Shown here one piece after another: positions 9,844 to 35,289 of a stretch of 35,500 nucleotides of DNA (its first letter is position 1; every line of letters begins with the position of its first letter). Below the pieces are notes generated by a model, which did not search any database, was not told where the DNA came from, and saw nothing but the letters and a program-made list of their open reading frames with translations. The stretch spans positions 1 through 35,500 of the forward strand of contig JAGQQS010000227.1 in NCBI GenBank assembly GCA_020426105.1. Reading direction: 5' to 3'. Source of the stretch: Planctomycetaceae bacterium. Its GTDB lineage: Bacteria; Planctomycetota; Planctomycetia; Planctomycetales; Planctomycetaceae. Position numbers and translations under genes: made by a program.

Positions 9844-12800
9844 TCATGGATCAGGCAACGTCGCCGCAGCTGTGACTCCGCCTGTCCTGTCATCCCCCGC
9901 GACGGTAAACACCGCCCAGTAGTATGGATGCGTCAGAAATCGCAGCGGTTCCTGGGGAAACTCACGCCAGGTTTTCAAATAGGCTCGCTGTGCTTCCGCC
10001 AATGCGCGCGGGGCGGACGTTCCAGTGCCAATCCGGACCCAGAAATCATTCATGATGTCAGGAGCCGTCGCATCGTAAATATCCCACAATCCAGAGATGA
10101 CAGTGCGGGCACCGCCGTGAAGCAGGGCACGCTGAATTCCGAACAAATCATCGCCGGGCATCGGAGAACGGTCGGCGAAACCGCCGTAACAGGCATTCAA
10201 CAGCACCAGATCTGCCTCAACATCCATTTCATAAATTTCACTTGCTCTCAAATAGCCATCGTTGTTTTCATCCGACTGGCAAACCAAATACGCATCCAGA
10301 GGCTGATCAGGAGTTTTTTGGCCGTGAGTGGAAATTGACAGGATTCCCGGTTGCCCCAGCAAAGCATTCACGTTTGTCTCCGTGGCGTCTTCGTTCGATA
10401 TCAGTCCGTTGATCTTGTCGCCAAATATATGCTGAAGGTTTTCAATTTCGGTCCTGACCCCGGGCAGATTGCTGGCGTGTCCACCGAAATCCGCAATTCC
10501 AATTATGTTGACTTGAGACAACGGGCGATTCATCTGTTGCCGCAGCAATCGCCACGTTCCCAGGGACGGAGCATTTACGATGCTGAATGGCTCTTCCACA
10601 AAAAATCTCGGCAGCGGCATCAGCGTCGGTGCAGTGGCCGAGGTGTCCAGCTCAGTCACGAGCGCCGCAAACGGAAAATAGTGCAGAATGTGATGCGGAA
10701 CAATCACCAGCGAATCGGCGGAGTGCAATAACTCACGACATCGACCGGGTACCAATGTGTTATAGAACCAAAATAAGTCATCTTGCCATGCGTGATCGAA
10801 CGTTGCTTTCCCCGATCCGCTGGCGGCATGAGCTATTCGACGACCTTCCACCGGCCCCAGTCGGTCAAATCGGGTGATCAAATCATGCACCTTGGCGATC
10901 AGCACTCTCGATGCGATAGGCTGGCCTTCATCGTCCTGCAGAACGAACGCCTTCACCTTTCCATCGCAACTGACCGCGAAGAGCCACGTCTTCTCAGAGC
11001 CGATGAAATACTCCAGCGCCGCCGTCCCCGAAGGCCAGTCTAAGAGAGCATCGGACGACGTTGAGGTGATGTGTTGGCTTGATGATGACAGATGTCGGTT
11101 TGCAGAAAGCACGTCCTGCAATGCTCTGGCCTTGGCCGATTCCGCAAATTGCAGTGCTTCTGAATCCCGCTTTAGCTCCACAAGTAGTTCGACAATTCTC
11201 TCGTTCACATAGGCGTGTCTTGCAAAGAAGCCCGCACTCGTTCGTCCAGTTTGGTCTGCCGGGATCCGTTCGCGCAGGATCTCAGTGAGCATCTGAGACT
11301 TCAACAATTCATCAAGGGCCAGTGCAGATTCATCCTGGGAGCTTCCCTCTGAATGCACCTCGCTGAGGAGCAGCCCACGCAGGCGATAGATACTCTCACA
11401 TCCCGCAAGTGACCCATTATCGAGGTAGGTCGCAAGCGCCCGATCTGCGTGTTCAAGACAGCCGGAACTGTCACCACGGCGCAGAGCAAGGTGGGCGAGA
11501 ATTTCTTCCCCAACGGCTGGGATCAATCCATCGACCGGATCTGTTTCTCGTGCAGCTTCCTCGGCAGCTTTCTCGGCTTGGCTTTCTGCGACTCTCACCA
11601 TCGGCGACTTGGCCCCGTCTGCAGAAATGGGCTGAAGCACGCGAATGATATCTGCCAGAGTGCTGAAAAGATGAGCGATATTCACGCGAATCGCCGGTAC
11701 CTGCTTTGGATCAGTCGCGGCTGCGATTGTGATTGCCAACTCCAGCTGTTCTCGCGATTGATGCCAGTCCAGCAGCGAAGCCACCAAAGGGTGTTGCACA
11801 CCGCTTGCCATCTGAAACGCATGATTGTAGAGACGATCCTGGCAACGGTTCAGAAGAAATGTGCCGAAGTTGTTGTGAGCACGAAGTTGGTCGGCCCGAT
11901 CACACGCTTCGAGCAGTTCGATCGCTTCGAAAAACAACGCTTCTGCAAGGTCTGCTGTGGACTGGCCAGATTCTGCAAGGACGACCGCACGATAAAGAAC
12001 TGAAAGTGCGTGCGTGCGTGGATCTGAAGATGTCTTGATTCCATCCAGAAGTTCAGTCGCATTTTTCCATCTCCCAGCGTCGATTGCGTTTCGTACCAAG
12101 TCGATGGATTCGATCCCTGTGGCATCGGGGTCTTCGGTAGCCCCCGACTTCTTTCCTTCGAGACGGTTGCGAATGTCGGCGTACACTGAACGCAGGTGCT
12201 TTGTCGGTAATTCTGTACCATCGGCCCGATCAAGCAGATCGAACGCATCAACCAGCAACGGCCGTGGCGTCTGCATCTCTTGATGGCCCAGCAGCGTCTC
12301 AACGGTGATTTGCAGTGATACGGCGTCATCGACCTTTCCGAACATTGTTTTTGCCTGTTCAGAACTGGCCATGATATCCATTCGGGCGTCTGCAGTCGCT
12401 ATGCGAAATGATGTATCCGTCCCCGCCTTCGTTGCCCTCATGTTGTATTCTCCCGGCGGAAGTCCATCAACAAGCGCCTCAGGCAGACCACTAATCCCGG
12501 ACCATCGCAGCGTTTGTTCGCCATCGTCCAGAGACAAACGCAGTATCACCCTGTTGTTTCTGGTGATGTTCAGTTGATCCGGAGGGAATGGTTGTGACTT
12601 GTCATCCCCGGCTCTGCGGCGAATCGTGATCCTTCCATCAAGTATTAATGACTTATCCGGCGGGGTGATAAAACTACTGCCTCGCAGCACGACCTGGCCA
12701 ACAAGCTGAACAAGTTGCGTGGTGGGGGGCAGCATCGCGGAAGGCGTGATGCTGGAATCACCTCGGCTGTTATGGCTGACCAGCGCGACGAACGAAGTCG

Positions 12801-13056
12801 CAACGTCAGATGCCAGTTCGAGGCGATCCGTCGGGAGAAACTGCCAGCGATCTTTTCCCTTCTCTGACCATACTAACAGACCAGGGTGTTTGAGTTCGTC
12901 ACCGAGACTTGTGATTTGTACTGGATCGACCAGGATCGCATCGCGATCGCTAACGCGAATGAGCATACCCATGTCTTCACCACTGGCCGACTGGGATCCT
13001 GCCGGGATTGCCAGCAGCACAATTGCTATAAGGAAAGCGAAGCTGTTTCTGTGCAT
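9844..13056 (-). CDS. Secreted TPR-CHAT protease
   Basis: The protein has 1070 aa from the chosen ATG, which gives a textbook signal peptide (MHRNSFAFLIAIVLLAIPAG); the open frame extends 43 codons further upstream without signal features. Residues about 30-280 form an unrecognised beta-rich N-terminal part. TPR-like helices (about 280-620) follow, ending in the ESAKARALQDVL segment that typically precedes CHAT domains. The C-terminal CHAT domain (caspase HetF associated with TPRs) has ISTHGQ (His about 911) and LLNACYGG (Cys about 956), so the caspase-type dyad is intact. CHAT proteins are clan CD cysteine peptidases; some act in bacterial defence. Here export points to cleavage outside the cytoplasm (inference). 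It starts 56 bp after the DUF4384 gene, most likely in the same operon. Confidence 0.9.
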   Translation of the reverse strand: MHRNSFAFLIAIVLLAIPAGSQSASGEDMGMLIRVSDRDAILVDPVQITSLGDELKHPGLLVWSEKGKDRWQFLPTDRLELASDVATSFVALVSHNSRGDSSITPSAMLPPTTQLVQLVGQVVLRGSSFITPPDKSLILDGRITIRRRAGDDKSQPFPPDQLNITRNNRVILRLSLDDGEQTLRWSGISGLPEALVDGLPPGEYNMRATKAGTDTSFRIATADARMDIMASSEQAKTMFGKVDDAVSLQITVETLLGHQEMQTPRPLLVDAFDLLDRADGTELPTKHLRSVYADIRNRLEGKKSGATEDPDATGIESIDLVRNAIDAGRWKNATELLDGIKTSSDPRTHALSVLYRAVVLAESGQSTADLAEALFFEAIELLEACDRADQLRAHNNFGTFLLNRCQDRLYNHAFQMASGVQHPLVASLLDWHQSREQLELAITIAAATDPKQVPAIRVNIAHLFSTLADIIRVLQPISADGAKSPMVRVAESQAEKAAEEAARETDPVDGLIPAVGEEILAHLALRRGDSSGCLEHADRALATYLDNGSLAGCESIYRLRGLLLSEVHSEGSSQDESALALDELLKSQMLTEILRERIPADQTGRTSAGFFARHAYVNERIVELLVELKRDSEALQFAESAKARALQDVLSANRHLSSSSQHITSTSSDALLDWPSGTAALEYFIGSEKTWLFAVSCDGKVKAFVLQDDEGQPIASRVLIAKVHDLITRFDRLGPVEGRRIAHAASGSGKATFDHAWQDDLFWFYNTLVPGRCRELLHSADSLVIVPHHILHYFPFAALVTELDTSATAPTLMPLPRFFVEEPFSIVNAPSLGTWRLLRQQMNRPLSQVNIIGIADFGGHASNLPGVRTEIENLQHIFGDKINGLISNEDATETNVNALLGQPGILSISTHGQKTPDQPLDAYLVCQSDENNDGYLRASEIYEMDVEADLVLLNACYGGFADRSPMPGDDLFGIQRALLHGGARTVISGLWDIYDATAPDIMNDFWVRIGTGTSAPRALAEAQRAYLKTWREFPQEPLRFLTHPYYWAVFTVAGDDRTGGVTAAATLPDP

Positions 13057-13112
13057 TTCACGACTCAATTGTATCCAGGACATTGGAAGGGGAACTCTGA
13101 AACATTGTGCGA

Positions 13113-14402
13113 CTAAGGCTTGCCGATGACGCGAAGGCCAAGGTAATGGACATCGCCAAGTTCCTCCGGTAACTTCAGATACCACTCCTTCAGACGGACA
13201 GCGACTTCGGTCGCAGCAATCGGCTCGGCAGGTCCGATCGAGCGCGATGCGTATGATTCACCAAGTCGCGCCTTCAGGTCGGCAAGCATCACACCGCCGG
13301 AATTCCCATTCGCCGCTGGAAGTAGTCTTGGGGTCATCAGCGGAATTCCATCCACAAGCAGCGTATCGGATTCAATCCCTGGTAAGGGTAAGGAAAAACG
13401 GAGTTGATCCAGAACGGTTTCGGGGGCCTTGAAAGGACTGTCCCGGACAATCACCACGCACAGCAGTGTTCCGTCATTCTCAGGAACCGTAATTGCCTCT
13501 CCGTCCTGAGGCGGAAAGGTAGCAAGACGATCTGTGCCAATCTTGTTTTGCGTTCCCAGATAGGCAGCAATGCCATTTGATCCAACCGTGTAAACGTAAA
13601 CATGGGCTCCAGATTTAACTCCAACACCAATCCGAAATGCATCACCGCCATACAGCGACGATGGCCGATCGGTCAGCCGTTCGTGGCGATTCATGTCTCC
13701 TGAACGATAAACGTCCACAGTCCAGGCAACATCATAGTCAGCCCTGAAATCGCCTGTCGCAGTGGCAGTCGAGTATTTCCGATTTGTGGTCGAATCAATC
13801 GCCAAATAGGCAATCATGATTAGACATGCCGCGATGGCAACGAACACAGGGAGATAACTCGAAAGTCCAATCCGCTGTTTTCGAACTGGAATTTGTTCAT
13901 CGATCAGCAATAGTTGCGGATCCCGATCACCATGATTAACTGGTTGAAGCGAGTCTGCCAGTCGCATTGCCTGAAGCAGATCTGAAGAACAACTCAATGC
14001 TGCCGCTTCATCACAAATGGATTCCAGAAGTTCCATCTGCAACCTTAGCTTTTGAGGGAGGTCCGGGAATATTTCGATCATGAGAACGGAAGGCTCGGGA
14101 ACGCCGGATTTTCCTCTTGCCAGCCATTCTCCATATATTAAATCAGCGACAAAGTCCGAACTGATTTCCCAATTGGCGGCCGAAGTGTTGAGCTCCTGCA
14201 GGTAGTCTTCGACTGACCTGCCATTACCTCGCATCCAGCGCAATCGCTGGTCAACCAGAACAAGATTCCGCCGGTCGCGAGGCGAAAGTGTTTCCTCCAA
14301 AAGGAGTCGCTGCAAATTCTCTGCGTCGGAATCTGGAATCCAGTTACGCAGGAATTCCTCGACTGCCAAACCCATGACAGAGGTTCGGTTCGATTTGGTC
14401 AT
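13113..14402 (-). CDS. Membrane protein with DUF4384-like domain, anti-sigma-like layout
   Basis: The protein has 429 aa. It has no signal peptide. Residues 40-130 carry DQRLRW, VEDYL and DLIYGEWLARGKSG, matching the N-terminal module of the WD40 kinase next door. One transmembrane helix (about 182-203) leads to an extracytoplasmic domain of about 215 residues. That domain resembles DUF4384 (LYGGDAFRIGVGVKSGAHVY, then VYTVGSNGIAAYLG), a fold found beside caspase and CHAT proteases. The layout, with a cytoplasmic helical part, one helix and an outside sensor, is that of a transmembrane anti-sigma factor. The gene directly follows the ECF sigma gene (158 bp gap), so it may regulate that factor. 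This role is inference; no known anti-sigma domain (ZAS type) is visible. Confidence 0.75.
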   Translation of the reverse strand: MTKSNRTSVMGLAVEEFLRNWIPDSDAENLQRLLLEETLSPRDRRNLVLVDQRLRWMRGNGRSVEDYLQELNTSAANWEISSDFVADLIYGEWLARGKSGVPEPSVLMIEIFPDLPQKLRLQMELLESICDEAAALSCSSDLLQAMRLADSLQPVNHGDRDPQLLLIDEQIPVRKQRIGLSSYLPVFVAIAACLIMIAYLAIDSTTNRKYSTATATGDFRADYDVAWTVDVYRSGDMNRHERLTDRPSSLYGGDAFRIGVGVKSGAHVYVYTVGSNGIAAYLGTQNKIGTDRLATFPPQDGEAITVPENDGTLLCVVIVRDSPFKAPETVLDQLRFSLPLPGIESDTLLVDGIPLMTPRLLPAANGNSGGVMLADLKARLGESYASRSIGPAEPIAATEVAVRLKEWYLKLPEELGDVHYLGLRVIGKP

Positions 14403-14560: not shown

Positions 14561-15160
14561 TCAACTCTCGGAGACTTGCTGAGAGAATTCTGCAGCGATC
14601 TGCGCCAATGCCCGCGTATGCTGCTTTCTCAGGGCTTCGCCGCTAACGGCCCCCATCCTTTCCGCAATTGCAGACCAACTCAATCCTTCGTCTCGAAGCA
14701 GCATGATTTCACAGTCGCGAACTTCCAGACGCCCTTGAATACAGGAAGCCAACTCGGCACGAGCCAGGACATGATCAGGGCTTTCTGATTCATCAGAAGC
14801 ATCCGTCGTTAACGCCGCGTCATAGTCTGTGTTTCTTGAGAGATCACGTCGTTGTGCGTGCCAGAACCTTACAAGTTCCGCAATGCGATTGCGCGCAATC
14901 CCTTTCAATAGACCCACCAGATCTGTTGGCGTCTCTACCGTATACGATCCTTCTCGCATTCCATTAACGAATCGGAATATCACAGACTGAAAAACGTCAC
15001 TGTCACCGATAAAGCGTCGCAATCGCGAATCCAGCAGCGTAAAGCGAACCTCCCGCTGGAGCGCCTCGCCATAGCGGGTCATGACCTCTTCGACTGCGCC
15101 GGTCTCGCCATCACGAACGCGAAGTATCAAATTGGCAAAGTTTTGAGTGTCCACGCTCAT
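14561..15160 (-). CDS. ECF-family RNA polymerase sigma factor
   Basis: The product has 199 aa, the usual ECF length. The region-2-like part runs over about residues 20-95 (RYGEALQREV, then DSDVFQSVIFRFV and LKGIARNRIAEL). An acidic linker follows, then region 4 with a helix-turn-helix (RDCEIMLLRDEGLSWSAIAE, RMGAVSGEALRKQHTRALAQ). It resembles the planctomycete ECF groups that sit beside Ser/Thr kinases. ATG at 15160 is preferred over the TTG one codon upstream; GAGG lies about 10 bases before it. The gene is placed between the secreted caspase gene (91 bp upstream) and the putative membrane partner. It probably directs transcription of this cluster in response to signals relayed by the kinase or the DUF4384 protein (inference). 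Confidence 0.9.
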   Translation of the reverse strand: MSVDTQNFANLILRVRDGETGAVEEVMTRYGEALQREVRFTLLDSRLRRFIGDSDVFQSVIFRFVNGMREGSYTVETPTDLVGLLKGIARNRIAELVRFWHAQRRDLSRNTDYDAALTTDASDESESPDHVLARAELASCIQGRLEVRDCEIMLLRDEGLSWSAIAERMGAVSGEALRKQHTRALAQIAAEFSQQVSES

Positions 15161-15254
15161 CAATTTTCGGCCTCAGTGAACGATAATCGCTGTGGCATGC
15201 GATTATGCGTTGACCTCCACTGGTGTCAAGCAACTGAGATTGTGTCGGGAATAC

Positions 15255-17489
15255 TTAAGGCAAAACAATCCACTGAACAACTGACGATGTCCATGAATTG
15301 TCTGTCGCAGCAGCCGGACGAAGTCGTTTGGTTCCTCCACGAGTGCGAAAATACGTATTTTCAATCAATATGTCATCCAGAGAGCGATTGTTGGCGGATC
15401 TGGCACCTCGCGTCACGGGCAGGCTGGCGCTTGCAAGAACGTAGAAATCATTGGGTTCCCGCGTTGCGAGCATGATTGCTGTTCTTCTGCCATGAATTGG
15501 TGGATCTCCGGGAGCGTTGCATTGAAACGGACCGCTCAGTCTTGATTCTCCCGGGAGTAGCAGTTGCTCTTCCGTCGCTCCCTGCTGATACGGAATCAGA
15601 ACGTCGATGCCCATATCTGCATCCACATGGAGAACAGTTACGTAGACGGGGTGCCCGGAAACTGCGGCCTCGGTATTGGTAATACGAACTGTGTAAATGC
15701 TACCGTCTCGCATGATCAGCGATCCTTGACCATCTTCATCACGAGAAACCGTCCATGGTCGATCGGCAATGATTTCGTTTCGGCTGTCGATGTCAATTTC
15801 AACCAGTTCCAGCTTCACCTGCGGCCGGGAAGCCTGGTCCGCTCCGGATTGTGCGACGATTCGCATAAGATTCCTGACGCGATTGATCTGCCGCAGCATT
15901 TTCATCAGATCGGCTGACGCTGTTTCAGATCGAAGATCAATCGGGCCCCAGCCACCTTTGAGCAACTTCGAAATCTTGTCAGGCTTCGCTGATCCCTGCG
16001 TCACCTTGGAACTATTCCCGGTTGATGGAAAGACGGCCGCATGATCATCGGCAATTCTAAGCACGACATCGCACGCGGCATCATCAGTTGCCAACACCAA
16101 CCAGGGTGATTCGCTGTCGTTCGTGCGGCCTCCGGCCAGAGCGTTGCGTACCAATTGCGGCAGCGAAGGATCATCCTTAGCCAAAGCGGGGCTGTCCTGA
16201 TCGACGTCAATGGCCCGAACGACTTTCATGCGCAGCATAAAATCACCATGTTCATGGACGCGTTCAACGGCATATCCCGCCAGAAAATCCGGCGGTAACC
16301 CAGTCGCGACCTGCTCATTTTCCTTCCATCGAAATACACTCGCCATTGAAGTTACACCGTCGGTCTGTTCGATTCGGAGCCACGGTCGAGACGAGTCGTC
16401 AACGGTAATGTCAGTAGACGCCAGTGGATCGGGAATCTGGTCTGGGCGATCATAGAGTTCGAATAGCGACCCTGTCGTGATGCCGTGCAGCGATCCCGCA
16501 TGAACGGTTGCCATCGACTGATCACTTGAATCATAGCTCACTTTCCAGAACGGTTGCCGGTCAAGTGACGCAGTCGCCCCCAGTACAATGCTGCTTCGGG
16601 CACCTTCAAGTTGCGGGGTCGGTGCCTGAGTAACTCCCGCCTGGCGGTAGTGTACGACCAGTGACTCACACAATGCGTCATAAGATAACTGCGAAACTGC
16701 CGTCTCCTGATTCAGGATCTGGGTCACAAACCTGGTCAAGAGTCCGTATTGCAGAGTGCCATCCTGGTACTCTGGCTCTTTTTCACTTGCTCGACACGCC
16801 GACAACAAAACCGCTCCGTCTGGCAGTCGCTTTGGTGTGACACGGCGAGTCGTTTCTAAATCCACGTCCAATGGCAATACCGATCCTCGTTCCAGTGACC
16901 GAAAGCGAGTCGTCCCACGAGCTCCGGTTCCCGAATGGCAACAATCCAGCAATAACCAGACCCTTGCTTTTTCGCCATGGCAAATCTGATCCGCAAAGGC
17001 GAACACTTCGTCATCGCGGATGTCTTCGGATCCTCCCTGCGTTGTCGCATCACAGGGAACCAGCGTTTCATCCAGTCCGTCCTGTTCGTCGCTGCCTGCG
17101 TCACCCGAAACCTGGTCGGCCACCTGCGATCCATGCCCGCTGAAGTGAAATACGATTTGTGCGGGTGCAGAATCTGCTGGTAAGGCATGGACTCGCTGCA
17201 CCAGTTTCGAAAGTTCCTGCCGGATTGTCGCCCCGGTCGCAGCTTCGTCGTTTAGCGTCACGACTTCAGCAGGCAGAAAACCAAATCGTTGAATCAGCAA
17301 AGTACTCATTGCCCGGGTGTCGTTAACGCAACCGGCAAGTTGTTCATGTGGAGCCAGATTCTGGTACTTTTCGACTCCGACCAGTAAGGCCAGTCGAAGC
17401 GGAATGGCATTGGTATCCGGTTGCCCGAACGAAGTGGTGTTGATCGCCACCGTGAGCAGCAGGATTGTCATTGAAGAACGTGGAAACAT
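15255..17489 (-). CDS. Secreted caspase-like (C14) protease with DUF4384-like C-terminus
   Basis: The protein has 744 aa from ATG 17489. The frame also allows a TTG start at 17549 that overlaps the stop of the small upstream gene, so coupled translation from there is possible. The segment MTILLLTVAINTTSFG acts as a signal peptide in either case. The C14 domain follows (LRLALLVGVEKYQNL; FHFSGHGSQ with catalytic His; WLLLDCCHSGTG with catalytic Cys), giving an intact dyad at about His119 and Cys184 from the ATG. Residues about 330-744 contain regions resembling DUF4384 (MRDGSIYTVRITN, YVTVLHVDADMGIDVLIPY). Bacterial caspase-like enzymes cleave after basic residues. Export suggests an extracytoplasmic target. 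It heads the sigma/CHAT cluster. Confidence 0.9.
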   Translation of the reverse strand: MFPRSSMTILLLTVAINTTSFGQPDTNAIPLRLALLVGVEKYQNLAPHEQLAGCVNDTRAMSTLLIQRFGFLPAEVVTLNDEAATGATIRQELSKLVQRVHALPADSAPAQIVFHFSGHGSQVADQVSGDAGSDEQDGLDETLVPCDATTQGGSEDIRDDEVFAFADQICHGEKARVWLLLDCCHSGTGARGTTRFRSLERGSVLPLDVDLETTRRVTPKRLPDGAVLLSACRASEKEPEYQDGTLQYGLLTRFVTQILNQETAVSQLSYDALCESLVVHYRQAGVTQAPTPQLEGARSSIVLGATASLDRQPFWKVSYDSSDQSMATVHAGSLHGITTGSLFELYDRPDQIPDPLASTDITVDDSSRPWLRIEQTDGVTSMASVFRWKENEQVATGLPPDFLAGYAVERVHEHGDFMLRMKVVRAIDVDQDSPALAKDDPSLPQLVRNALAGGRTNDSESPWLVLATDDAACDVVLRIADDHAAVFPSTGNSSKVTQGSAKPDKISKLLKGGWGPIDLRSETASADLMKMLRQINRVRNLMRIVAQSGADQASRPQVKLELVEIDIDSRNEIIADRPWTVSRDEDGQGSLIMRDGSIYTVRITNTEAAVSGHPVYVTVLHVDADMGIDVLIPYQQGATEEQLLLPGESRLSGPFQCNAPGDPPIHGRRTAIMLATREPNDFYVLASASLPVTRGARSANNRSLDDILIENTYFRTRGGTKRLRPAAATDNSWTSSVVQWIVLP

Positions 17490-17545
17490 GTCGCTATTCG
17501 AAATGGAAGTCGCTTCAGGAAGATCGGTTTGAATTCGGAAGTTTT

Positions 17546-17767
17546 TCAATCAGCCTTGCTCACTCCCTTAAGTCCCGAACGCTGCATCTTTTTTCCAGTC
17601 ATCAATCCCCACCCGACTTTGCAGAACAGGCACGTAACAACCAATAAGACCAATTCAACACCCCAGTTTATGGACTCAATCGGCTGAATCCCGATATAGA
17701 ACTGGTAGCCAAAAGCTGCTGCTACCAGCAATACGGGGATCGCGACGATTTTCTTAAAAACGTTCAT
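17546..17767 (-). CDS. Small two-helix membrane protein
   Basis: The 73-aa hydrophobic protein has helices at about residues 5-25 (IVAIPVLLVAAAFGYQFYIG) and 36-55 (WGVELVLLVVTCLFCKVGWG), then a basic tail (MTGKKMQRSGLKG). No family is recognised. Its stop codon overlaps the TTG alternative start of the secreted caspase gene, which suggests one transcript. The upstream ribosome site is weak. It could be an anchor or partner of the protease; that is inference from position only. Confidence 0.6.
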   Translation of the reverse strand: MNVFKKIVAIPVLLVAAAFGYQFYIGIQPIESINWGVELVLLVVTCLFCKVGWGLMTGKKMQRSGLKGVSKAD

Positions 17768-20237: not shown

Positions 20238-20354
20238 TGAAGACTCCGAATGCCGTTCGTAAATGTCGAAAATGAACAAGTGCACATCTTTTTACTCGCG
20301 TGGACTCATCCTCCAGAAAGGTCGCATCTGCACAGTTTGAAGTCACACAGAGTG

Positions 20355-23518: not shown

Positions 23519-25021
23519 TTATTCCTGCTGCGCCGTATTCTGTTCTGTGGGTGATGGCTCGGTCGCTTTTGATGTCGCAGCCTCTGACTTGTTTGGCAGT
23601 GCGTTTGGCGGCGGTTCGTGTTGCGCGGGCTTCTGCAAAACGATGGTTTTGAAGCGTTCGCGCAGACTCACTTGCGTCAACAGGTTCGGATCAAGCATCT
23701 GCTGCCTCGCTGCGGGAAGTTTCTCCCAGCCACCTTTCGTCTTTGCGACTGTCAAATTGCTGGTCCCGTCCTCGTTGGTATCGGTCAGGATCATGTCCAC
23801 TTCGCCGTCGTTGTCCCGGTCATAGAAAACGCGAGTATTGGGAATTCGAACGTAGGCCACTTCAAAATCAAACTGTTCTCGCTTCGCTGTCCCGGCTCGA
23901 AATTCTTCGACAAATGTCGGTTTTGTGTCTTCATCAAGGTCGAACAGAATCCCCGACGCCGGGTCCATATCGTTGATTGTAAAGAACCAGGTTTCGAATT
24001 TGTCGTCACCATCTCTGTCCATCAGTTTGCTGGACGTCGCTGGAGGCCAGTAGTCCGGACGAAACACCTCGGGTTTTTCGGGTTTGTTGACGGTAAAGGC
24101 TCTGACCTCATCGAGATGCACGTGGTAGCTGAACTTGTCCAGATTGACCTGAGAATCCTTGTCCGATTTTGGTATCGCAAAATTCACGGCCACCAACTCT
24201 CCTTCATTGTTCAGCAGTGGACCGCCGGAATCTCCGGGGTTAATTCCACATGTCGAAAGCAACGCCTTTCGAGACTGGCCGTGACGGAGAGACTCCGCGA
24301 ATGATTCCTGGGCTGCCACGGACATTGTGAATTGCGGCATGATCGAATCAATCATATCGCCGGGATAGTTTCCCGCGCCGACAATCTCACCGCTGCGGAC
24401 TGACCAGAACAGGCCGCGTGAGGGATGTCCGATCGTGATGCAATCCAGCCCCGGATCAGCATTCTTCCCGGCGAAGCGGACGGGATTCAGTGTGCGCCCC
24501 TCTGGCAGTGTCTTAAGCTTCAATAAGGCGAGGTCCTTTTCAGCACTCGCGGCATGCACGAAAGCCAGATGGCTCGTCTTGTTCAGGTTCATAAACCCTT
24601 CCTTCATATCCCCAAAATGGATGAAGGCGAAGCGACTGCCGGAATCAATATCAATGGATGCTGAAGCAATCACATGATTGTTGGTCAGTATCCAGCCGTC
24701 GGAATCAATCACAAATCCGGTTCCATAGCCAGTCGGAATTCGCACGACGACAACCGCTGGTGCGACCTCCGGAAACACCAACGATGCCGCACCGCGACTG
24801 GGACCTTCCAGAAGTCTCCGTATGTCTGCGGATGGCGTTTCGGCTTCAAGATCCACAGGACCGCTGTCCGGATACAGAGCGGCCATGGCCTGTTCCGGAT
24901 GAACCGGCAGACTCACTGAGTTGCCAGCCGAGTCCTTCGTCTGTGCGCTGCACGGGATGATGGTCAACATCATTGTCAGGACGGTGCCAAATCCGATGTT
25001 CAGGGGTGTTTCATATCCCAT
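23519..25021 (-). CDS. Secreted trypsin-like serine protease with Asp-rich loops
   Basis: The product has 500 aa from ATG 25021 (GGAG upstream); a TTG five codons earlier is less likely. A signal peptide (about 1-27) precedes an S1C trypsin-like domain of DegP/HtrA type. The triad is complete: ILTNNHVIA (His116), EKDLALLKL (Asp163) and NPGDSGGPLL (Ser265). No PDZ domain follows. Residues 330-425 instead carry four Asp-rich loops (DRDGDDKFE, DLDEDTKPT, DRDNDGEVD, DTNEDGTSN) like EF-hand, dockerin or thrombospondin-3 calcium sites. A low-complexity tail rich in Pro, Ala, Ser and Glu ends the protein. It lies 91 bp after the TPR gene and is last in the FHA-caspase operon. It is a likely calcium-responsive extracytoplasmic protease (inference). 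Confidence 0.9.
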   Translation of the reverse strand: MGYETPLNIGFGTVLTMMLTIIPCSAQTKDSAGNSVSLPVHPEQAMAALYPDSGPVDLEAETPSADIRRLLEGPSRGAASLVFPEVAPAVVVVRIPTGYGTGFVIDSDGWILTNNHVIASASIDIDSGSRFAFIHFGDMKEGFMNLNKTSHLAFVHAASAEKDLALLKLKTLPEGRTLNPVRFAGKNADPGLDCITIGHPSRGLFWSVRSGEIVGAGNYPGDMIDSIMPQFTMSVAAQESFAESLRHGQSRKALLSTCGINPGDSGGPLLNNEGELVAVNFAIPKSDKDSQVNLDKFSYHVHLDEVRAFTVNKPEKPEVFRPDYWPPATSSKLMDRDGDDKFETWFFTINDMDPASGILFDLDEDTKPTFVEEFRAGTAKREQFDFEVAYVRIPNTRVFYDRDNDGEVDMILTDTNEDGTSNLTVAKTKGGWEKLPAARQQMLDPNLLTQVSLRERFKTIVLQKPAQHEPPPNALPNKSEAATSKATEPSPTEQNTAQQE

Positions 25022-25112
25022 GGCTGCTGGCTCCAAAGTGCGATGAACGTGGTATCACGAAACAGCGACATTTCTGATGAAATCGATTCTATTCTTCCTG
25101 CGGTAAAAGAAT

Positions 25113-27110
25113 TCAGGCACTCGTTGCCTGATCTCCGACGGAAACATCCAGTACCATCGCGCCGCCGACAGCCGCAACAGTTCTGACTTTGCGGGTTGCC
25201 AGCAGTTGGTCGAGTTTTCCGGACTCCCTGGCCCTGAGTTTTTGCAGTTTTCGATTCGGCAGAATTGCCAATACGGAAAGCGCCACGACAACACTTGTCG
25301 TAAGCGTCAGCAAAATCCAAAGCACGGGTGAGTATCCTCGACCTGCCGAGTAGTAGGCGGCGAACAGACAGCTCATAATTATCCAGGTCCAGTCTTTTGT
25401 CTGACTGGATGTGGCGTCCTCGGAGACTTCGGAATTACCCTCGCTGGCGACGCTGGTTACCGGATTCGACTCAGCCGGGATCGGCGGTTGTGCGGCGATC
25501 TGTTCCTTCACCTGCATGATGTTATTGCGGACAGTCGCCAGTAAAGGAGATTCGGGAGCGACGTTCATCAGGATTTGTTCGGCTCTCGCAAAGAATTCCA
25601 GAGCCTTCGCGGGGCCGGTAAGACGCTGCTGCAGTACGCCGAAATGGTTGATAATGTCGGCATCACGAAAATCAATCGCGAACCCTAAGTCGCGTCGCAG
25701 GTTGTAGCATTTGTCGAACAACTGCATCGCGTCGACATCCTTCCCCGCTTTTAAGTGCAGCAATGCCAGGGTATACATCATTTCGTGTTCCTGATTGAGA
25801 TCAGGGAATCCTGAATCCGCGTTGGATTGACGACCGGCTTCCAGACTCTTCTTCGCCAGTGCCAGTTCTCCGGCAGCAATCTGATGATCCGCCAGCAGCT
25901 TCCACGACGCAGCTATCTCCGGGTGCGCATCGCCCAACACCCTGCGTTCGATGTCCAGTCCTGCCTCTGCCGCATCGACTGCTTCCGTCCATCGCTGACC
26001 AGCGGCAAACAGAGCCGCTTCGTGATACTTCAGCCACGCTGCTGGTGCGGAGATTTCTCCGAACGCAGCAGCTTCGGCCTGTAACGCTGGCAATTCGGAA
26101 ATGGCCTGTTCCAGCTGGCCTGAGTTGACCAGTCCCACCTGAGCCGTGCGTCGCTGGTGCCATGCCGCGATGGCCTCAAGGCGATTCAGCCGTGTTGTGA
26201 TTGCTTCCACCTGTTTAGCGTCACTCCGAGCCTGATGAAGGACTAGCTGATGCCTCAGGATTGGTCGAAAATCCGGAGAGTCAGGTCCTTTCAATTTTTC
26301 GGCGCGTTCCAAAGCAAGGCGGTTGACGGTCAGTGATTCTTCCAGCTGCTGATCGGCTTGCAGGTTCTTTGACAGACGAAGCAGACCGTTGATCACATCG
26401 ACGTTCCATTGGCCGTGCAACGCTTCGTAAATCCTCACGGATTCTCGATGAAACGGAAGTGCCGCTGCAGCATTCTGGTGCAGTTCGATTTGAGTGGCCA
26501 GAGCTGCGTTGGCAGCGGCGACCTGAAGGGAATTCTCGCCATCCGATGTCCTGCGGATTTCAAGAATGCGCCGCAGGCAGTCAATCGATTTCTCATGTTG
26601 ATTCGCCTGTGCGCAGGCGTCTGCAAGATTCTGGAGAAGATTGATGAGGCGTGGGTCTTCGTTGCCGTACTCGAATACTCTGATCTCGAGCGCTGCTTCG
26701 AATGCCTTTACTGAATCACCGTAGTCGGCATGGCGGAAACAGGCGAAACCAAGGTTGTAGTTCACAACGGCGCGTTGTTCAGAATGACTTTCGGCAAGGC
26801 CGTCCAGCGCCTTTCGGAAGTATTGGATCGCTGCGGCTGGTTGTTGCTGATCCAGCTGCATAAGCCCCCATTGATTATTGGCTTCGCTGCGTACCTGAGC
26901 AGAATCCTTTGCCTGATCTGCTATTTCCAGTGCCTGTGTACACAACTGTTCCGCGTCTGAGAATCGCTTCTCCAGTCGCGCCTGCGTTGCTGCAGTCAAC
27001 AGCTTCGTTGGCGGATCAACTTCGTCTGCAGCTGATGGACGGTCCATAAAGCATACGGCCAGAAGTACACATGCTAACGTGTGGGAATGTTTTACAATTG
27101 ACGTGCTCAC
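25113..27110 (-). CDS. TPR-repeat membrane protein
   Basis: The product has 665 aa with a signal peptide (HTLACVLLAVCFMDRPSAAD). Many TPR-like helix pairs cover about residues 35-520 (NNQWGLMQLDQQQPAAAIQY, VVNYNLGFACFRHADYGDSV, LQNLADACAQANQHEKSIDC). This repeat type is common in proteins that recruit CHAT or kinase partners. Two membrane helices near residues 572-615 (WIIMSCLFAAYY; LWILLTLTTSVVVALSVLAI) and a basic tail follow. The GTG start overlaps the stop of the PH-like gene by 4 bp (GTGA), so translation is probably coupled. The TPR part would face outside the cytoplasm, where the caspase and trypsin domains of the same operon are found. A scaffold role is inference. Confidence 0.85.
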   Translation of the reverse strand: MSTSIVKHSHTLACVLLAVCFMDRPSAADEVDPPTKLLTAATQARLEKRFSDAEQLCTQALEIADQAKDSAQVRSEANNQWGLMQLDQQQPAAAIQYFRKALDGLAESHSEQRAVVNYNLGFACFRHADYGDSVKAFEAALEIRVFEYGNEDPRLINLLQNLADACAQANQHEKSIDCLRRILEIRRTSDGENSLQVAAANAALATQIELHQNAAAALPFHRESVRIYEALHGQWNVDVINGLLRLSKNLQADQQLEESLTVNRLALERAEKLKGPDSPDFRPILRHQLVLHQARSDAKQVEAITTRLNRLEAIAAWHQRRTAQVGLVNSGQLEQAISELPALQAEAAAFGEISAPAAWLKYHEAALFAAGQRWTEAVDAAEAGLDIERRVLGDAHPEIAASWKLLADHQIAAGELALAKKSLEAGRQSNADSGFPDLNQEHEMMYTLALLHLKAGKDVDAMQLFDKCYNLRRDLGFAIDFRDADIINHFGVLQQRLTGPAKALEFFARAEQILMNVAPESPLLATVRNNIMQVKEQIAAQPPIPAESNPVTSVASEGNSEVSEDATSSQTKDWTWIIMSCLFAAYYSAGRGYSPVLWILLTLTTSVVVALSVLAILPNRKLQKLRARESGKLDQLLATRKVRTVAAVGGAMVLDVSVGDQATSA

Positions 27111-27676
27111 TGAATTGATTCCCTTTGTTCAAATGCTGCTGCCGCCGACTGAAGTTCGTTAAGTCGATTCACGAATATCGACATTTGGTCGCGGGAAATC
27201 GGACTCAGCCGGAAGGCGAATTGACTGCGTTTTCCGGACGGCAAGCGATAGGTGATGTAGTGTGTGGCACGATCGAACATCAGGATCACAGCCGGGATGA
27301 CGACGAAGGCGACGATGCCCAGCGGAATCGCTACGGCTGGTCCCAGGTCGGAAGCAACACTCATGAACAATAATCCAATTCCCCCAAACCAAAGCAGAAA
27401 GAACAAGATCTTCAGAAAGCTGATCGATACCCAGCGACCAGTCACCTTATGCCGGATGACCTGGGAATACGGGACCGTCCGCATAGTGCGTCCGGTAATC
27501 AGGCGAGCATAGAAGCGGCCGAAAAACGGCAACATAAATTTGGGAAGGTCACCGTGCACCATCAGGCCGGTGTCCTGCAACACCACGGAACCTTTTCCAT
27601 AAAAGTACAGTGGGCGTCCAAACATCGAATCCCACAACGACATACGTGGTATCTGAAATTTACATTCCTGTTTCAT
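27107..27676 (-). CDS. PH-like domain protein with two membrane helices
   Basis: The product has 189 aa. The N-terminal beta-rich part (FYGKGSVVLQDTGLMVHGDL; RTVPYSQVIRHKVTG) and the C-terminal part (THYITYRLPSGKRSQFAFRL) together resemble the bacterial PH-like fold. It is interrupted by two transmembrane helices (about residues 86-108 and 112-133). Such proteins are membrane-bound, with the PH-like part on the cytoplasmic side. Its ATG overlaps the kinase stop by 4 bp (ATGA) and its own stop overlaps the TPR gene start, so it sits firmly inside the operon. It may connect the kinase to the membrane complex (inference). Confidence 0.75.
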   Translation of the reverse strand: MKQECKFQIPRMSLWDSMFGRPLYFYGKGSVVLQDTGLMVHGDLPKFMLPFFGRFYARLITGRTMRTVPYSQVIRHKVTGRWVSISFLKILFFLLWFGGIGLLFMSVASDLGPAVAIPLGIVAFVVIPAVILMFDRATHYITYRLPSGKRSQFAFRLSPISRDQMSIFVNRLNELQSAAAAFEQRESIQ

Positions 27677-29295
27677 TGGACAACTCCTGCAGATTGCGAT
27701 GCCAGATCTCGCAGTTCCCGAAACTCAAAGCAATATCCGGCGATGTCCAGGAAGGCATCGCAAACGCTGATCGTCAATTCATTCAGGCCAAGTTCAAAGT
27801 AACTGTGAGCCAGCAGAAGTCCCGCAGCCATGTTGTACGGGTCTTCATTCAGCATGAGTTTTGCTTCCACAACAGCCTCCCTTTGGCGACCGTGTGCCAG
27901 CAATGCCTCGGCGTATTTTTGCCGGACTACCAGGTCCTCGGTCAGTTCTTGTGCCATGGCTCCCAAAATATCAAGTTGTTTGTCCGTATCTCCACTGTTC
28001 TCCGTAATCGCTCGGCGGAGTCCAATCTCGCGGTGCTGGGCACGAAGTTTGGAAAAGAGGTAAACCGTCAAGGGGACGAAAATAAGACTGAACAGTACGA
28101 TGGAGATCGTACTCCCCAGGATAATTGCAGATCCGAATTTATTGACGTCTACTCCGCCGGCATGAAGTCCCGCCAACACCGCCGGGAGAAAGGCTTGCGT
28201 CACGACGTAGCCAATGAGCAGCAGTAAGAGTCCGCCCAGCGTGAAACTGCTGCCTCTTAACAGGTGACGATGGAAAATCGCCCGCTGCCCCTGATAGAAA
28301 CACCACAAGCCTGCCAGCACGATCGTCGTTGGAATTGTCAGCAGAGGCCCGGACCAGAGGAGCGCTGACATGACACACCCGACGGTGTATCGACGCACCT
28401 TTCGCTGAGCCTGGGCATCAATCGTCAGTGCCTGGACTCGCACATTCTGTGAAACCGGCGTCTTCGTCTGATGACCGCCGCCAAGTTGCTGCAGAAGCGC
28501 TGCCGCTGAGTCGATGCGGTTCGCGGGTTGTTTTTCCAGAGTGCCGTAAATGATCTCTGCCAGTTCGTCGTCGTGGAAATCCTTCAGCAGGCTGGCCAGC
28601 GGCACGGGGCTCTTGTACAGAACTTCGGCGGCCAGTTCCTTGACCGTTTCTCCCCCGAACGGCAGCTCGCTGGTCAGGAGTTGGTATGCAACAACACCAA
28701 GTGCCCATAAGTCAGACTGAGCTGTCGGGCGCCCCCGCAATTGTTCGGGAGCCATAAAGTGATAGGTGCCGCCTGTCTTGCGTGAGACCTGCAGGCCCTC
28801 TGAAATACGACTGATGCCAAAGTCGGTTAAGACATATCGCGGTCCATCTCTGCCCTCGACCACAATAATGTTGGCTGGTTTGATGTCCCGATGCAACACT
28901 CCTGCTTCATGAGCGTGCTGCAGCGCAGAAGCCATTTGCCGCATGAAATCACGAGTTTCCGCAGCGTTGAATTGCCCGTGTGCCTTCGACCAGGCTTTCA
29001 AATCACCTCCGTTCAGGAATTCCAGTGAAACCACAAGTCGATCGTTGTCGATGAAGTAGTCCTGCAGACCGACAATGCCCGGATGTCGCAGTTTCGACAG
29101 GATCTCAGGTTCCAGCAGCAGGCGATCCAGATTGCCGCGGTTTTCCACCACCTTCAGTGCAACTGTGGTGGATGGCTTGTCGCGATGATGGGCGGCATAA
29201 ACTGTGCCGTGTGCCCCTTCGCCGATTTTCCTCTCCACGATGTAGGGACCAATGCGTTCAATGGTCGCACTTTCTGTTGAGGTTGCCATCGTCAT
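27673..29295 (-). CDS. Multi-pass membrane Ser/Thr protein kinase
   Basis: The product has 540 aa from ATG 29295 (GGAA seven bases before); the frame extends 11 codons further to a TTG. The Pkn-type kinase domain begins at residue 16 with IGEGAHGTVYAA, Lys48, HRDIKPAN (Asp137), DFG 158-160 and APEQ, and looks active. Three or four membrane helices lie at about 303-415. The C-terminus (about 440-540) is TPR-like and soluble (LVVRQKYAEALLAHGRQREA). The kinase faces the cytoplasm, the same side as the FHA domain of the caspase upstream, which suits phospho-threonine signalling between them (inference). Spacing to that gene is 73 bp, and the next gene overlaps by 4 bp. Confidence 0.92.
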   Translation of the reverse strand: MTMATSTESATIERIGPYIVERKIGEGAHGTVYAAHHRDKPSTTVALKVVENRGNLDRLLLEPEILSKLRHPGIVGLQDYFIDNDRLVVSLEFLNGGDLKAWSKAHGQFNAAETRDFMRQMASALQHAHEAGVLHRDIKPANIIVVEGRDGPRYVLTDFGISRISEGLQVSRKTGGTYHFMAPEQLRGRPTAQSDLWALGVVAYQLLTSELPFGGETVKELAAEVLYKSPVPLASLLKDFHDDELAEIIYGTLEKQPANRIDSAAALLQQLGGGHQTKTPVSQNVRVQALTIDAQAQRKVRRYTVGCVMSALLWSGPLLTIPTTIVLAGLWCFYQGQRAIFHRHLLRGSSFTLGGLLLLLIGYVVTQAFLPAVLAGLHAGGVDVNKFGSAIILGSTISIVLFSLIFVPLTVYLFSKLRAQHREIGLRRAITENSGDTDKQLDILGAMAQELTEDLVVRQKYAEALLAHGRQREAVVEAKLMLNEDPYNMAAGLLLAHSYFELGLNELTISVCDAFLDIAGYCFEFRELRDLASQSAGVVQ

Positions 29296-29368
29296 CGTGT
29301 TTCCATGATTGCCAAAGTAGAACGTCAATTGTCACTGCGTCGTCGATGTCAAGAGATTCGGAACGGAG

Positions 29369-31063
29369 CTATTCTTCATCCATCGTCACCAGGTCACCGA
29401 GTGTGGCTTCGACAACCACACCGGAATGGTTCCACGGACTGAGTTCCATCTCTGAAACGGCAGCCACTGGGCGTGATTGACCTGCCAGATTCCCAGCAGG
29501 CTGCGCTGGACGAATCAGGATTTCCAGCGTCAAAACTTCGGCAACGGAGACGAGGTCGCCCGAGACAACCACCGCAGATTCGTTTCGGACGAGGGGCCGA
29601 CCGTTTAACTGAGTGCCAGTGGTACTTCTGTCGATGACAAAATACTGGTCGTCGATTCGTTTGAATTCCAAATGTCGGCGACTCAACAAACGTGTCTTTG
29701 AATCCGATTCCGGAATTCGAATCACGAAGTCATTCCCTTCATCCGCCATCTGTCCCGCTTTTCTGCGCTGACGACCAACCGTGACGCGTTCTGCTCCGAA
29801 CGGAGCGCGGTAGGCATACGGTGACCCCTGGACTTGCAGATACAGTTCACCGACGTCCGTCTGTTGCGGCATGGATTTGCTGATCGACGCTGTCGAACTG
29901 CTCCCGGACTGACCCGAGTTTTGCACGATTGCTTCCGCCAGCGTCCGCCGCGCTGGTCGGAAATACCACCACGCACAAGAGCTCGTCGCAATCACGGTGA
30001 GAATCGCAGTCGTGCCCAGGAGTGGCCAGTATGACGACGTATTGCCAGTTACCTTGCCGTCAGATACTTCATCCGGCGGGACTAGCGACCTGTTGTTACC
30101 AGAAACAGTTTCCTCATCCGCCGTCGATGAACCGCTTAGATCTTTTGGAAAGAAATAGAAGTCACCCTCGCCGGCCAGCCAGCCACCACGTGGGTCCTGC
30201 TGAACGTCTTTCATGGCGCGAATTCGACTTGGAATGAACGCGAATAATTCACTCGCCGTGAACAGGCTTTGGTTGTCTCCTGTGGGTCCGTGAGCCATCG
30301 CGTCCAGAAACACGCGAGTAAACGGTGAGTGTTCGCCTGAAATGTCTGCGTCTGCCGCGACCTGAGTGGCTTGCGCAGCAGCGATCGCCTGCAAAACGGG
30401 TGCTTCGAACAGATTGGCTCGAAATCCCCGGTTGACACCAGCCGACCGTGATGACTTGAAGTTGAAAACTTCGCCCGAATGACAACTGTCCAGCACCAAC
30501 AGTTGATGCCGCGCTGCGCAATAGTCCTGCAGCATTCGAAGCACGTCGTCGATTCTGAGACAACTGACGGGATCGACACCTTTGCCGTCGATCACGTGCA
30601 AATCGGAAGGATACAGCATGCCGACAAACGCATCCTGCTGACTGTGTCGTTGCTGTCTTTCTCCATGCCCCGCATAGAAGATAAACACCGCATCGTCGCT
30701 TTTAACTTTGGATGAATCACCCAGAAATTCGGTACCGAACTGGGCCCGGATACCCTGGAGAGTCGCGTCTTTCCCCAGCAGCAAATGCACATCCTGCGAC
30801 TGAAACCCATAGTGCCCTACCAGCACATCGCGGACAGCCTGAGCATCATTTTCGGCCGTTTTCAGCCGAGGCACTTCGATTTGGGCGTCGGGGCCAAGAG
30901 TGTCGTAGTTGATGCCGACAACCAGCGCATATTGCCGCCGATATCGCGGCTGCGTTGTTTCACCAAGTCGCTTATCCGCTGCATCACAAGGCAACAATGT
31001 GCCGAAGCAGGCAAGTGCCGACACAAGGACGACCCAACGGACATTGAAGCTGACGACAGTCAT
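29369..31063 (-). CDS. Caspase-like (C14) protease with TM helix and cytoplasmic FHA domain
   Basis: The product has 564 aa. Signal peptide (about 1-29), then a C14 domain (about 44-305): YALVVGINYD, FIFYAGHGE (His133) and LLVLDSCHSGE (Cys194), so the catalytic dyad is intact. A linker and a transmembrane helix (about 346-368) follow. The C-terminal FHA domain (about 422-505) has the GR, SRRHLEF and TGTQLNG signature positions needed to bind phospho-threonine. A cleaved N-terminus plus one helix puts the protease outside and the FHA domain inside. The gene leads the operon, followed by a Ser/Thr kinase. FHA binding of kinase-phosphorylated partners could gate an external caspase-like activity (inference). 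C14-TM-FHA is an unusual order. Confidence 0.93.
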   Translation of the reverse strand: MTVVSFNVRWVVLVSALACFGTLLPCDAADKRLGETTQPRYRRQYALVVGINYDTLGPDAQIEVPRLKTAENDAQAVRDVLVGHYGFQSQDVHLLLGKDATLQGIRAQFGTEFLGDSSKVKSDDAVFIFYAGHGERQQRHSQQDAFVGMLYPSDLHVIDGKGVDPVSCLRIDDVLRMLQDYCAARHQLLVLDSCHSGEVFNFKSSRSAGVNRGFRANLFEAPVLQAIAAAQATQVAADADISGEHSPFTRVFLDAMAHGPTGDNQSLFTASELFAFIPSRIRAMKDVQQDPRGGWLAGEGDFYFFPKDLSGSSTADEETVSGNNRSLVPPDEVSDGKVTGNTSSYWPLLGTTAILTVIATSSCAWWYFRPARRTLAEAIVQNSGQSGSSSTASISKSMPQQTDVGELYLQVQGSPYAYRAPFGAERVTVGRQRRKAGQMADEGNDFVIRIPESDSKTRLLSRRHLEFKRIDDQYFVIDRSTTGTQLNGRPLVRNESAVVVSGDLVSVAEVLTLEILIRPAQPAGNLAGQSRPVAAVSEMELSPWNHSGVVVEATLGDLVTMDEE

Positions 31064-31305: not shown

Positions 31306-32061
31306 TCAATCACAGTCCGGCGCGTCACATCGCGAAGCCGCCTCCAGCCGTTGCAACGCCCGAATCAGTGGTTCATTGTCGTTGTCTGATTCGGGAATGC
31401 TGGCTCGGGCATCGGCCAGTTGCTTTCGAACACTGTCGCGAATCGGTTCAGGAATGGTGATTTCCAAATCACTTTCCAGGGCAACCAGCGCACGTGCGTC
31501 GCCCGTGAGTCTGGCCTGTTGAATGGTTCGCATGCAGAACTTCAGGCATTCATACTGTTCGACTTCAACATCCGCGACGGACGCCATTACGCGGTCCGAA
31601 GTGTCGCGAGTGACAGCGGCCAGCTTTCGGCCGATGGCTATCTGCGCTGCCAGATCTTGATCCTGCCGCAGAGTCGCAAATTGGGCCAGACGTTCCATCG
31701 ACACGTTGTCGTGATGCTGACTGGCAGCGTTTACGGCCAGTTTCAATGCCTGCCTGGCGGTGATGGCTTTGCGAGGTCGCTGCAGTACACGTTCGCCTTC
31801 GGCCAGTTGCAGAGCCACATCGGTCAACAACACCGGATCAACGCTGCCGTAGGCGCGGCCGATTGTGAGGGGGTTGACATAGACGTCAAATGCCGGATCC
31901 AGAATATCGGTGCCGACCTGCATGCGTTCAATCGTCAGCCCCCGACTGGCCTCAAGTTCCGGAACCGGCCCGTCCGCAATCGCCATGCATGGCGTCAATG
32001 CGCAGACGCCACACACAGTCCACAGTGAGAGCATAACAATCGTCGTGTCTTTGCGATTCAT
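31306..32061 (-). CDS. Secreted helical-family protein (full-length reference copy)
   Basis: The product has 251 aa from ATG 32061 (GGAATATTCA before it); the frame continues 21 codons upstream. Signal peptide about residues 1-29 (TTIVMLSLWTVCGVCALTPC). The rest is the family helical module alone: VNPLTIGRAYGSVDPVLLTD, LQLAEGERVLQRPRKAI, RLAQFATLRQDQDLAAQIAI, VADVEVEQYE, ARLTGDARALVALESDLEI, and a cysteine-bearing end AASRCDAPDCD. It has no extra C-terminal domain, unlike the 358- and 400-aa paralogues. The 18.4-kb copy is a 5'-truncated relative. Function unknown. It is divergent to the plus-strand paralogue and lies 243 bp upstream of the FHA-caspase operon. Confidence 0.8.
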   Translation of the reverse strand: MNRKDTTIVMLSLWTVCGVCALTPCMAIADGPVPELEASRGLTIERMQVGTDILDPAFDVYVNPLTIGRAYGSVDPVLLTDVALQLAEGERVLQRPRKAITARQALKLAVNAASQHHDNVSMERLAQFATLRQDQDLAAQIAIGRKLAAVTRDTSDRVMASVADVEVEQYECLKFCMRTIQQARLTGDARALVALESDLEITIPEPIRDSVRKQLADARASIPESDNDNEPLIRALQRLEAASRCDAPDCD

Positions 32062-35093: not shown

Positions 35094-35289
35094 GCGTTTT
35101 TCCAAATGTAAGTTTCAGATTCTCCAGCACCGCCTGATTGCCTTTCAGGGGAAAGGTGGACACGTGAAAATCTGGAAAATGAACAACCTGGAGAAATGTT
35201 TTGTCCGTGTGGTGTTGCATCAGCAATTGGGGATCTATGTAGATCCGTTGCTGCGCCATGCATCTTGTGGATTGTCAAGGATGTGTGTT

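What the first reader, a model, noticed from the sequence alone, without database searches (positions are those of the whole stretch)
23519..31063. Five-gene operon linking an FHA-caspase, a kinase, a PH-like protein, a TPR protein and a trypsin-like protease
Seen: five minus-strand genes, with 4-bp ATGA/GTGA overlaps at both inner junctions (kinase/PH-like, PH-like/TPR) and gaps of 73 and 91 bp elsewhere. Both proteases keep their full catalytic residues and have signal peptides. Known: FHA domains bind phospho-threonine, and Pkn kinases make it. Inference: the kinase and FHA domain meet in the cytoplasm while the C14 and S1 proteases act outside. That would be a transmembrane phospho-signal-to-proteolysis cascade, distinct from described cytosolic bacterial caspase systems.
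Basis: partly seen in the sequence, partly recalled or inferred. Interest (0 to 1): 0.82.

Follow-up and report, generated by a model that had tools for sequence, protein, structure and literature searches.

The report
Kinase-linked exported caspase operon in planctomycetes
A planctomycete carries a conserved five-gene operon that joins an internal protein kinase and a phosphate-reading (FHA) domain to two proteases predicted to sit outside the membrane, a caspase relative and a trypsin-like enzyme, which may let an internal phosphorylation signal control protein cutting on the outside.

Summary
Five minus-strand genes encode C14-TM-FHA, a Hanks kinase, a PH-like membrane protein, a TPR protein and an HtrA-like trypsin. 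Two genomes of another family (G340, G282) carry all five in the same order, with the same two 4-bp overlaps, at 40-62% identity. There the caspase and this FHA are two adjacent genes. The window protein is therefore a fusion, joining at or just after the TM (residues 361-384); one deletion would remove the relatives' caspase-borne FHA and the FHA protein's front part. The same rare FHA subfamily (5 of 398 class genomes) is fused to a kinase in two others. These two fusion patterns support, but do not prove, the kinase-FHA-caspase link. Hydropathy puts both protease domains outside and the kinase and FHA inside. The operon sits in a wider planctomycete locus (CHAT, second caspase, ECF sigma, kinases) that occurs without it in G035. 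Exported bacterial caspases and caspase/kinase/trypsin conflict systems are known. No paper found describes this combination. Phosphorylation, FHA binding, protease activity and any cascade are inferred, not shown.

The parts
29369..31063 (-). C14-TM-FHA protein (564 aa): signal-peptide-like segment ~10-29, C14 domain 43-270 (H133, C194), TM 349-368, FHA 427-506, C-terminal beta-hairpin tail
29912..29983 (-). fusion interval (residues 361-384): homology to the relatives' C14-FHA1 gene ends and homology to their separate FHA2 gene begins
29546..29785 (-). FHA2-subfamily FHA domain with conserved GR, SxxH and NG ligand residues
27673..29328 (-). Hanks-type Ser/Thr kinase with cytoplasmic kinase domain (29-277), 3-4 TM segments and an operon-specific C-terminal region; ATG start possibly at 29295
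27107..27676 (-). PH/PTB-like protein with a two-helix TM hairpin between strands 5 and 6 (low-confidence model); found only with this operon apart from one borderline match
25113..27110 (-). TPR protein: signal-peptide-like N-terminus, TPRs predicted outside, C-terminal TM 598-617 and short basic tail predicted inside
23519..25036 (-). exported HtrA-like (Trypsin_2) serine protease with triad H121/D168/S270, no PDZ domain, and a C-terminal region with Asp-rich loops; ATG start possibly at 25021
15255..17549 (-). second caspase-like protein ('ortho'), same locus; homologue (46%) lies near the operon in G340/G282
14561..15163 (-). ECF-type sigma factor of the surrounding locus
13113..14402 (-). 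weakly DUF4384-like protein resembling the relatives' kinase protein of the same locus without its kinase domain
9844..13185 (-). CHAT-domain protein of the surrounding locus

Best explanation
The operon encodes a membrane-bound phospho-signalling unit that controls two exported proteases. Steps and their status: (1) five co-transcribed genes form a conserved unit (shown by conservation; probability about 0.98). (2) The C14 domain, the TPRs and the HtrA-like trypsin lie outside the cytoplasmic membrane, while the kinase domain, the FHA domain and probably the PH fold lie inside (hydropathy; about 0.85). (3) The kinase, perhaps prompted by the TPR protein spanning the membrane, phosphorylates threonines on itself or on PH/TPR cytoplasmic segments, and the FHA of the caspase binds them, gathering C14 molecules at the kinase-PH-TPR complex (inferred; about 0.45). 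(4) Clustering or repositioning switches on the external C14, which cuts an external target, possibly the trypsin at the invariant Ser-Arg-Gly (residues 80-82) just before its protease domain (speculative; about 0.15). The surrounding CHAT, second caspase and ECF sigma genes suggest it is one sensor-effector branch of a larger stress or conflict locus.
For: Same gene order, strand and both 4-bp overlaps in G340 and G282, a different family, at 40-62% identity. Low dN/dS between those two for every gene (0.04-0.37). Fusion and split pattern: the FHA2 gene lies next to the caspase gene in G340/G282 and is fused to the caspase here; the same FHA subfamily (234-270 bits; next best hit 43) is fused to kinases in G101 and G180. 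The relatives' caspase also carries its own TM and FHA, so C14-TM-FHA is the constant arrangement even though the FHA differs. Catalytic residues of both proteases and the kinase are conserved. The FHA model matches phospho-threonine-binding FHA structures including OdhI/GarA. The PH protein and kinase C-terminal region occur essentially only with this operon. Polyangium sp. y55x31 has neighbouring trypsin, TM-C14 and TM-kinase genes on one strand, a similar set built differently.
Against: No biochemical evidence. The genome has dozens of other kinase candidates (90 first-look candidates), so the FHA may read another kinase's mark. Topology rests on hydropathy alone. The conserved FHA tail first suspected as a phospho-threonine switch is modelled as a structural beta-hairpin, and its threonine is missing in G180. 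The kinases fused to FHA2 in G101/G180 are not orthologues of the operon kinase. The operon is rare, seen in three genomes of two genera.
Confidence: 0.45

Rival explanations
1. Outside-in signalling: the exported C14 and trypsin cut envelope proteins (the TPR protein, DUF4384-like proteins) on stress, and the cytoplasmic FHA/kinase and the locus's ECF sigma factor are the output, as in regulated proteolysis.
For: An ECF sigma factor and a DUF4384-like protein lie in the same locus here and beside the homologous core in G035; the trypsin is HtrA-like, the type used as an envelope stress protease.
Against: The core locus with ECF sigma exists without the operon in G035, and no ECF gene was seen beside the operon in G340/G282 in the stretches read.
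Confidence: 0.22
2. Co-expressed parts without a cognate kinase-FHA link: the FHA docks the caspase to phosphoproteins made by other kinases, and the operon kinase has separate targets.
For: Many other kinase candidates in the genome; FHA domains are common in the class (weak FHA hits in half its genomes).
Against: FHA2-kinase fusions in two other genomes and strict adjacency of FHA and kinase genes in all three operon genomes.
Confidence: 0.2
3. A defence or self-killing system of the caspase/kinase/trypsin conflict type, set off by invaders, with damage done in the envelope.
For: Caspase, trypsin, TPR, kinase and FHA domains recur in predicted conflict systems of multicellular bacteria including planctomycetes (PMC7159879, PMC8195603); neighbouring CHAT proteins; patchy distribution.
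Against: No MoxR, vWA or STAND match in the operon proteins; PADLOC gives only generic kinase, caspase and RT-protease hits; the proteases point outwards.
Confidence: 0.13

Closest known systems
PknG-OdhI/GarA phospho-signalling of actinobacteria (PMC8546545)
   Same: Hanks kinase, TPR element and an FHA protein whose state depends on phosphorylation; the FHA2 model matches OdhI/GarA structures.
   Different: OdhI/GarA regulate cytoplasmic metabolic enzymes; here the FHA is tethered to an exported protease and the TPR protein is a separate, predicted external one.
Bacterial caspase homologues (orthocaspases/metacaspases, PF00656; PMC3501461)
   Same: C14 domain with His-Cys dyad and DSCHSG motif; some known members have N-terminal TM or signal peptides.
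   Different: The term FHA does not occur in that survey's text; here a C14-TM-FHA protein is in an operon with kinase, PH-like, TPR and trypsin.
Caspase/trypsin/kinase conflict systems (VMAP, iSTAND, EACC1; PMC7159879, PMC8195603)
   Same: Same domain vocabulary, overlapping taxa.
   Different: No vWA, MoxR or STAND domain matched; caspase and trypsin are reported there as mutually exclusive in the VMAP systems' effector position but co-occur here; they are predicted external here.
DgcB of Bdellovibrio (PMC6733907)
   Same: An FHA domain switching an attached enzyme through a phosphopeptide ligand.
   Different: The enzyme is a diguanylate cyclase and the ligand is its own N-terminus; here enzyme and FHA are predicted to be separated by a membrane.
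TPR-CHAT/Craspase protease systems
   Same: The locus also holds CHAT proteins; the 1273-aa protein of G340 is TPR-CHAT.
   Different: No CRISPR genes recognised; the CHAT proteins here have N-terminal export-like segments.

Membership tests
Peptidase C14 (caspase-like) | C14 profile match with His-Cys dyad | tested here: met
   PF00656 4.7e-18; YAGH133G and DSC194HSG; nearest solved relative by sequence is metacaspase-1 4f6o
Phosphothreonine-binding FHA | GR, SxxH and NG ligand residues and FHA fold | tested here: met
   PF00498, residues invariant, Foldseek to Dun1, Rad53, OdhI; binding itself not tested
Active Hanks-type kinase | VAIK-type lysine, HRD, DFG | tested here: met
   VALK, HRDIKPAN, TDFG; activity not tested
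HtrA/Deg protease | Trypsin_2 domain followed by PDZ domain | tested here: not met
   Trypsin_2 present, no PDZ in Pfam; all NCBIfam HtrA/Deg models far below cut-off
PH/PTB-fold protein | seven-stranded barrel capped by C-terminal helix | tested here: inconclusive
   model pLDDT 60 with the right order of elements; best Foldseek hits mostly PH/PTB but E >= 0.002; no Pfam match
EACC1-associated caspase | caspase above the NCBIfam cut-off of NF047832 | tested here: not met
   NF047832 63.9 bits against cut-off 140
OdhI/GarA-type regulator | phospho-threonine motif that self-binds the FHA | tested here: inconclusive
   conserved tail modelled as structural hairpin; Thr absent in G180
Inside-out phospho-gated protease | FHA and protease on opposite membrane sides | tested here: inconclusive
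   hydropathy and charges agree in window and relative; no dedicated topology predictor available

The most novel reading that the evidence does not exclude
A cytoplasmic Ser/Thr kinase writes phospho-threonine marks that a membrane-crossing FHA-caspase reads, switching on proteolysis outside the cell membrane: a phosphorylation-to-external-caspase relay, used as one branch of a multi-peptidase planctomycete locus.
Probability: 0.3. Interest if true: 0.85.

Novelty: new variant of a known kind. Interest (0 to 1): 0.62.

Why it matters
What bacterial caspases do and how they are switched on is largely open. Here a conserved operon offers a specific, testable controller (kinase plus FHA) tied to a caspase, predicted to lie on the opposite side of the membrane from its protease domain. 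If right, it would be a bacterial route from kinase signalling to envelope proteolysis, and the fusion/split pattern tells experimenters exactly which proteins to test together.

Tried and rejected
Phospho-threonine tail switch: the conserved tail V.A[ST].GD[LI]VT was first taken for an OdhI-like ligand, but AlphaFold2 places it as two strands (pLDDT about 82) on the FHA, and G180 lacks the Thr. Contamination or misbinning of the contig: rejected, tetranucleotide profile of window and operon fits the host genome (0.94-0.965; own contigs 0.93-0.97) and not G340 (0.78). Recent transfer between the two genera: GC dips in g155 (0.545-0.547 against 0.584-0.593 in the flanks) but tetranucleotides match its flanks, so any transfer is old. 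Plasmid carriage of the PH protein: no match. The one genome-wide scan, made with the trypsin alignment, was flooded by generic HtrA-like proteases and gave no further operon, only the Polyangium locus; it was a poor choice of query and the count of operons is therefore a lower bound. FHA in the Polyangium caspase N-terminus: none found. Excised FHA1 or FHA2 N-terminal part elsewhere: no remnant in the window, and the relative's FHA2 protein matches only its C-terminal FHA part in the host genome (assembly 87% complete).

Full report
What is there. Five minus-strand genes occupy 23519-31063, transcribed from high to low coordinates: C14-TM-FHA, kinase, PH-like, TPR, trypsin. Pfam gives C14 plus FHA, protein kinase, TPR and Trypsin_2; the 189-aa protein has no Pfam, NCBIfam or PADLOC match. 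Catalytic residues are intact in the caspase (H133, C194), the trypsin (H121, D168, S270) and the kinase.

Conservation. Searching the class with the caspase found two genomes of a different family, G340 and G282 (same genus, g155), with very strong matches split over two ORFs. The surrounding DNA (L055, L056) carries the complete operon in the same order: caspase, FHA protein, kinase (61% identity), PH-like (55-57%), TPR (40%), trypsin (56-57%). Junctions recur too: kinase/PH and PH/TPR overlap by 4 bp in all three genomes. All genes show purifying selection between G340 and G282 (dN/dS 0.04-0.37). A TPR-CHAT gene overlaps the start of the caspase ORF there by 10 bp, so the relatives have a seven-gene run. 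The PH protein was found in none of the other genomes of a 119-genome set of close relatives, in only one other genome of a 392-genome phylum sample (G620, borderline, E 6.8e-4), and in 2 of 119 genomes of the g155 family, both being G340 and G282; the kinase C-terminal region was found in no other genome of a 229-genome class sample. The operon is therefore real but rare.

The window caspase is a gene fusion. In G340/G282 the caspase gene encodes an N-terminal export-like segment, C14, a TM and its own FHA (FHA1), and the next gene, overlapping by 4 bp, encodes a zinc-ribbon protein with two hydrophobic segments and a second FHA (FHA2). Local alignment shows the window protein following the caspase gene up to residue 361, within its TM, and the FHA2 protein from residue 384 on. 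A single deletion spanning the end of one gene and the front of the next would give this product. No remnant of the missing parts was found in the window, and the FHA2 protein matches only its C-terminal FHA part in the host genome. The polarity of the event is not proven, and an assembly error cannot be wholly excluded, though the joint is in frame. The FHA2 subfamily is rare and sharply delimited: 234-270 bits in five of 398 class genomes, the next hit 43 bits. Two of those five, G101 and G180, have it fused to a Ser/Thr kinase. By the usual reasoning that proteins fused in one genome tend to interact in another, this links FHA2 to the caspase and to kinases. The kinases in G101 and G180 are not orthologues of the operon kinase, so the kinase link is suggestive only.

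Topology. Hydropathy shows an N-terminal export-like segment and a TM at 349-368 in the caspase, with three basic residues after it; the relative has a TM in the same place. The window TM is weak on the Kyte-Doolittle scale (missed at a cut-off of 1.6) but clear on the GES scale. This puts C14 outside and FHA inside. The trypsin has an N-terminal export-like segment and no other convincing TM. The TPR protein has an export-like segment and a C-terminal TM followed by a basic tail. The kinase has 3-4 TM segments after its kinase domain; the PH-like protein has a TM hairpin. No dedicated predictor was available. The PH fold rests on a low-confidence model (pLDDT 60) whose best PDB matches are nevertheless mostly PH/PTB domains.

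Surroundings. The operon is embedded in a wider planctomycete locus. Upstream of it in G340/G282 lie homologues of the window's CHAT protein (39-40%) and second caspase (46%). In G035, of the window's own family, CHAT, TPR-CHAT, second-caspase, ECF sigma and kinase genes occur together in the stretch read without the five-gene operon. In other families the second caspase, ECF sigma, kinases, CHAT and a helical family sit, in varying subsets, beside roughly 1050-1200-aa caspase proteins related to the window caspase at about 30-39%. The operon thus looks like an accessory branch of an existing multi-peptidase locus. The contig belongs to its genome by tetranucleotide profile.

Mechanism. The most likely reading is inside-out control: the kinase marks threonines, the FHA docks the caspase at the kinase-PH-TPR complex, and the external C14 acts on an external target. 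Bacterial orthocaspases cut after basic residues (PMC6426788, abstract), and the trypsin has an invariant Ser-Arg-Gly at residues 80-82, just before its protease domain; C14 activation of the trypsin at this site is testable but speculative. Outside-in signalling towards the ECF sigma, an unlinked FHA, and a conflict system are the main rivals.

Known context. PknG-OdhI shows a kinase, TPR and FHA working together (PMC8546545), and DgcB shows an FHA switching an attached enzyme (PMC6733907). Bacterial caspases with TM or signal peptides were surveyed in 2012; the word FHA does not occur in that text (PMC3501461). Predicted conflict systems use the same domains but with different core genes. 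No paper found in the held library describes this operon; most subscription papers are not covered.

Verdict. Observation confirmed; interpretation partly supported and strengthened on its central link, unproven on function. New variant of a known kind, interest 0.62.

Noticed in passing
window 18421-18945, 19035-20285, 20355-21431, 31306-32124, 32277-33209: Five copies of an unnamed helical protein family flank the peptidase genes; relatives lie beside CHAT/caspase clusters in other families (L142, L150, L207), one with a weak PDZ match.
   Followed up: partly
window 13113-14402; L055:3334-5391: The weakly DUF4384-like protein matches both ends of the relatives' kinase protein but lacks the kinase domain, a second apparent domain difference in this locus.
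   Followed up: partly
window 35092-35400 (+): Short fragment 61% identical over 36 residues to the C-terminal part of the g155 TPR-CHAT protein, possibly a decayed CHAT gene; the genome has 17 CHAT/TPR-like matches.
   Followed up: partly
L057:9632-18435: Polyangium sp. y55x31: trypsin with lipoprotein-like signal, C14 protein with a TM before its C14 domain, and kinase with a TM on one strand, a similar set from another phylum.
   Followed up: partly
L055:15502-19323: The TPR-CHAT gene overlapping the caspase gene differs more between G340 and G282 (79.5% identity) than its neighbours (91-99.5%).
   Followed up: no
L160:9006-15234: MoxR-like ATPase and Bat-like gene set (judged by eye from the translations) next to the cluster in G340 on the other strand; not seen beside the window operon, probably chance.
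   Followed up: no
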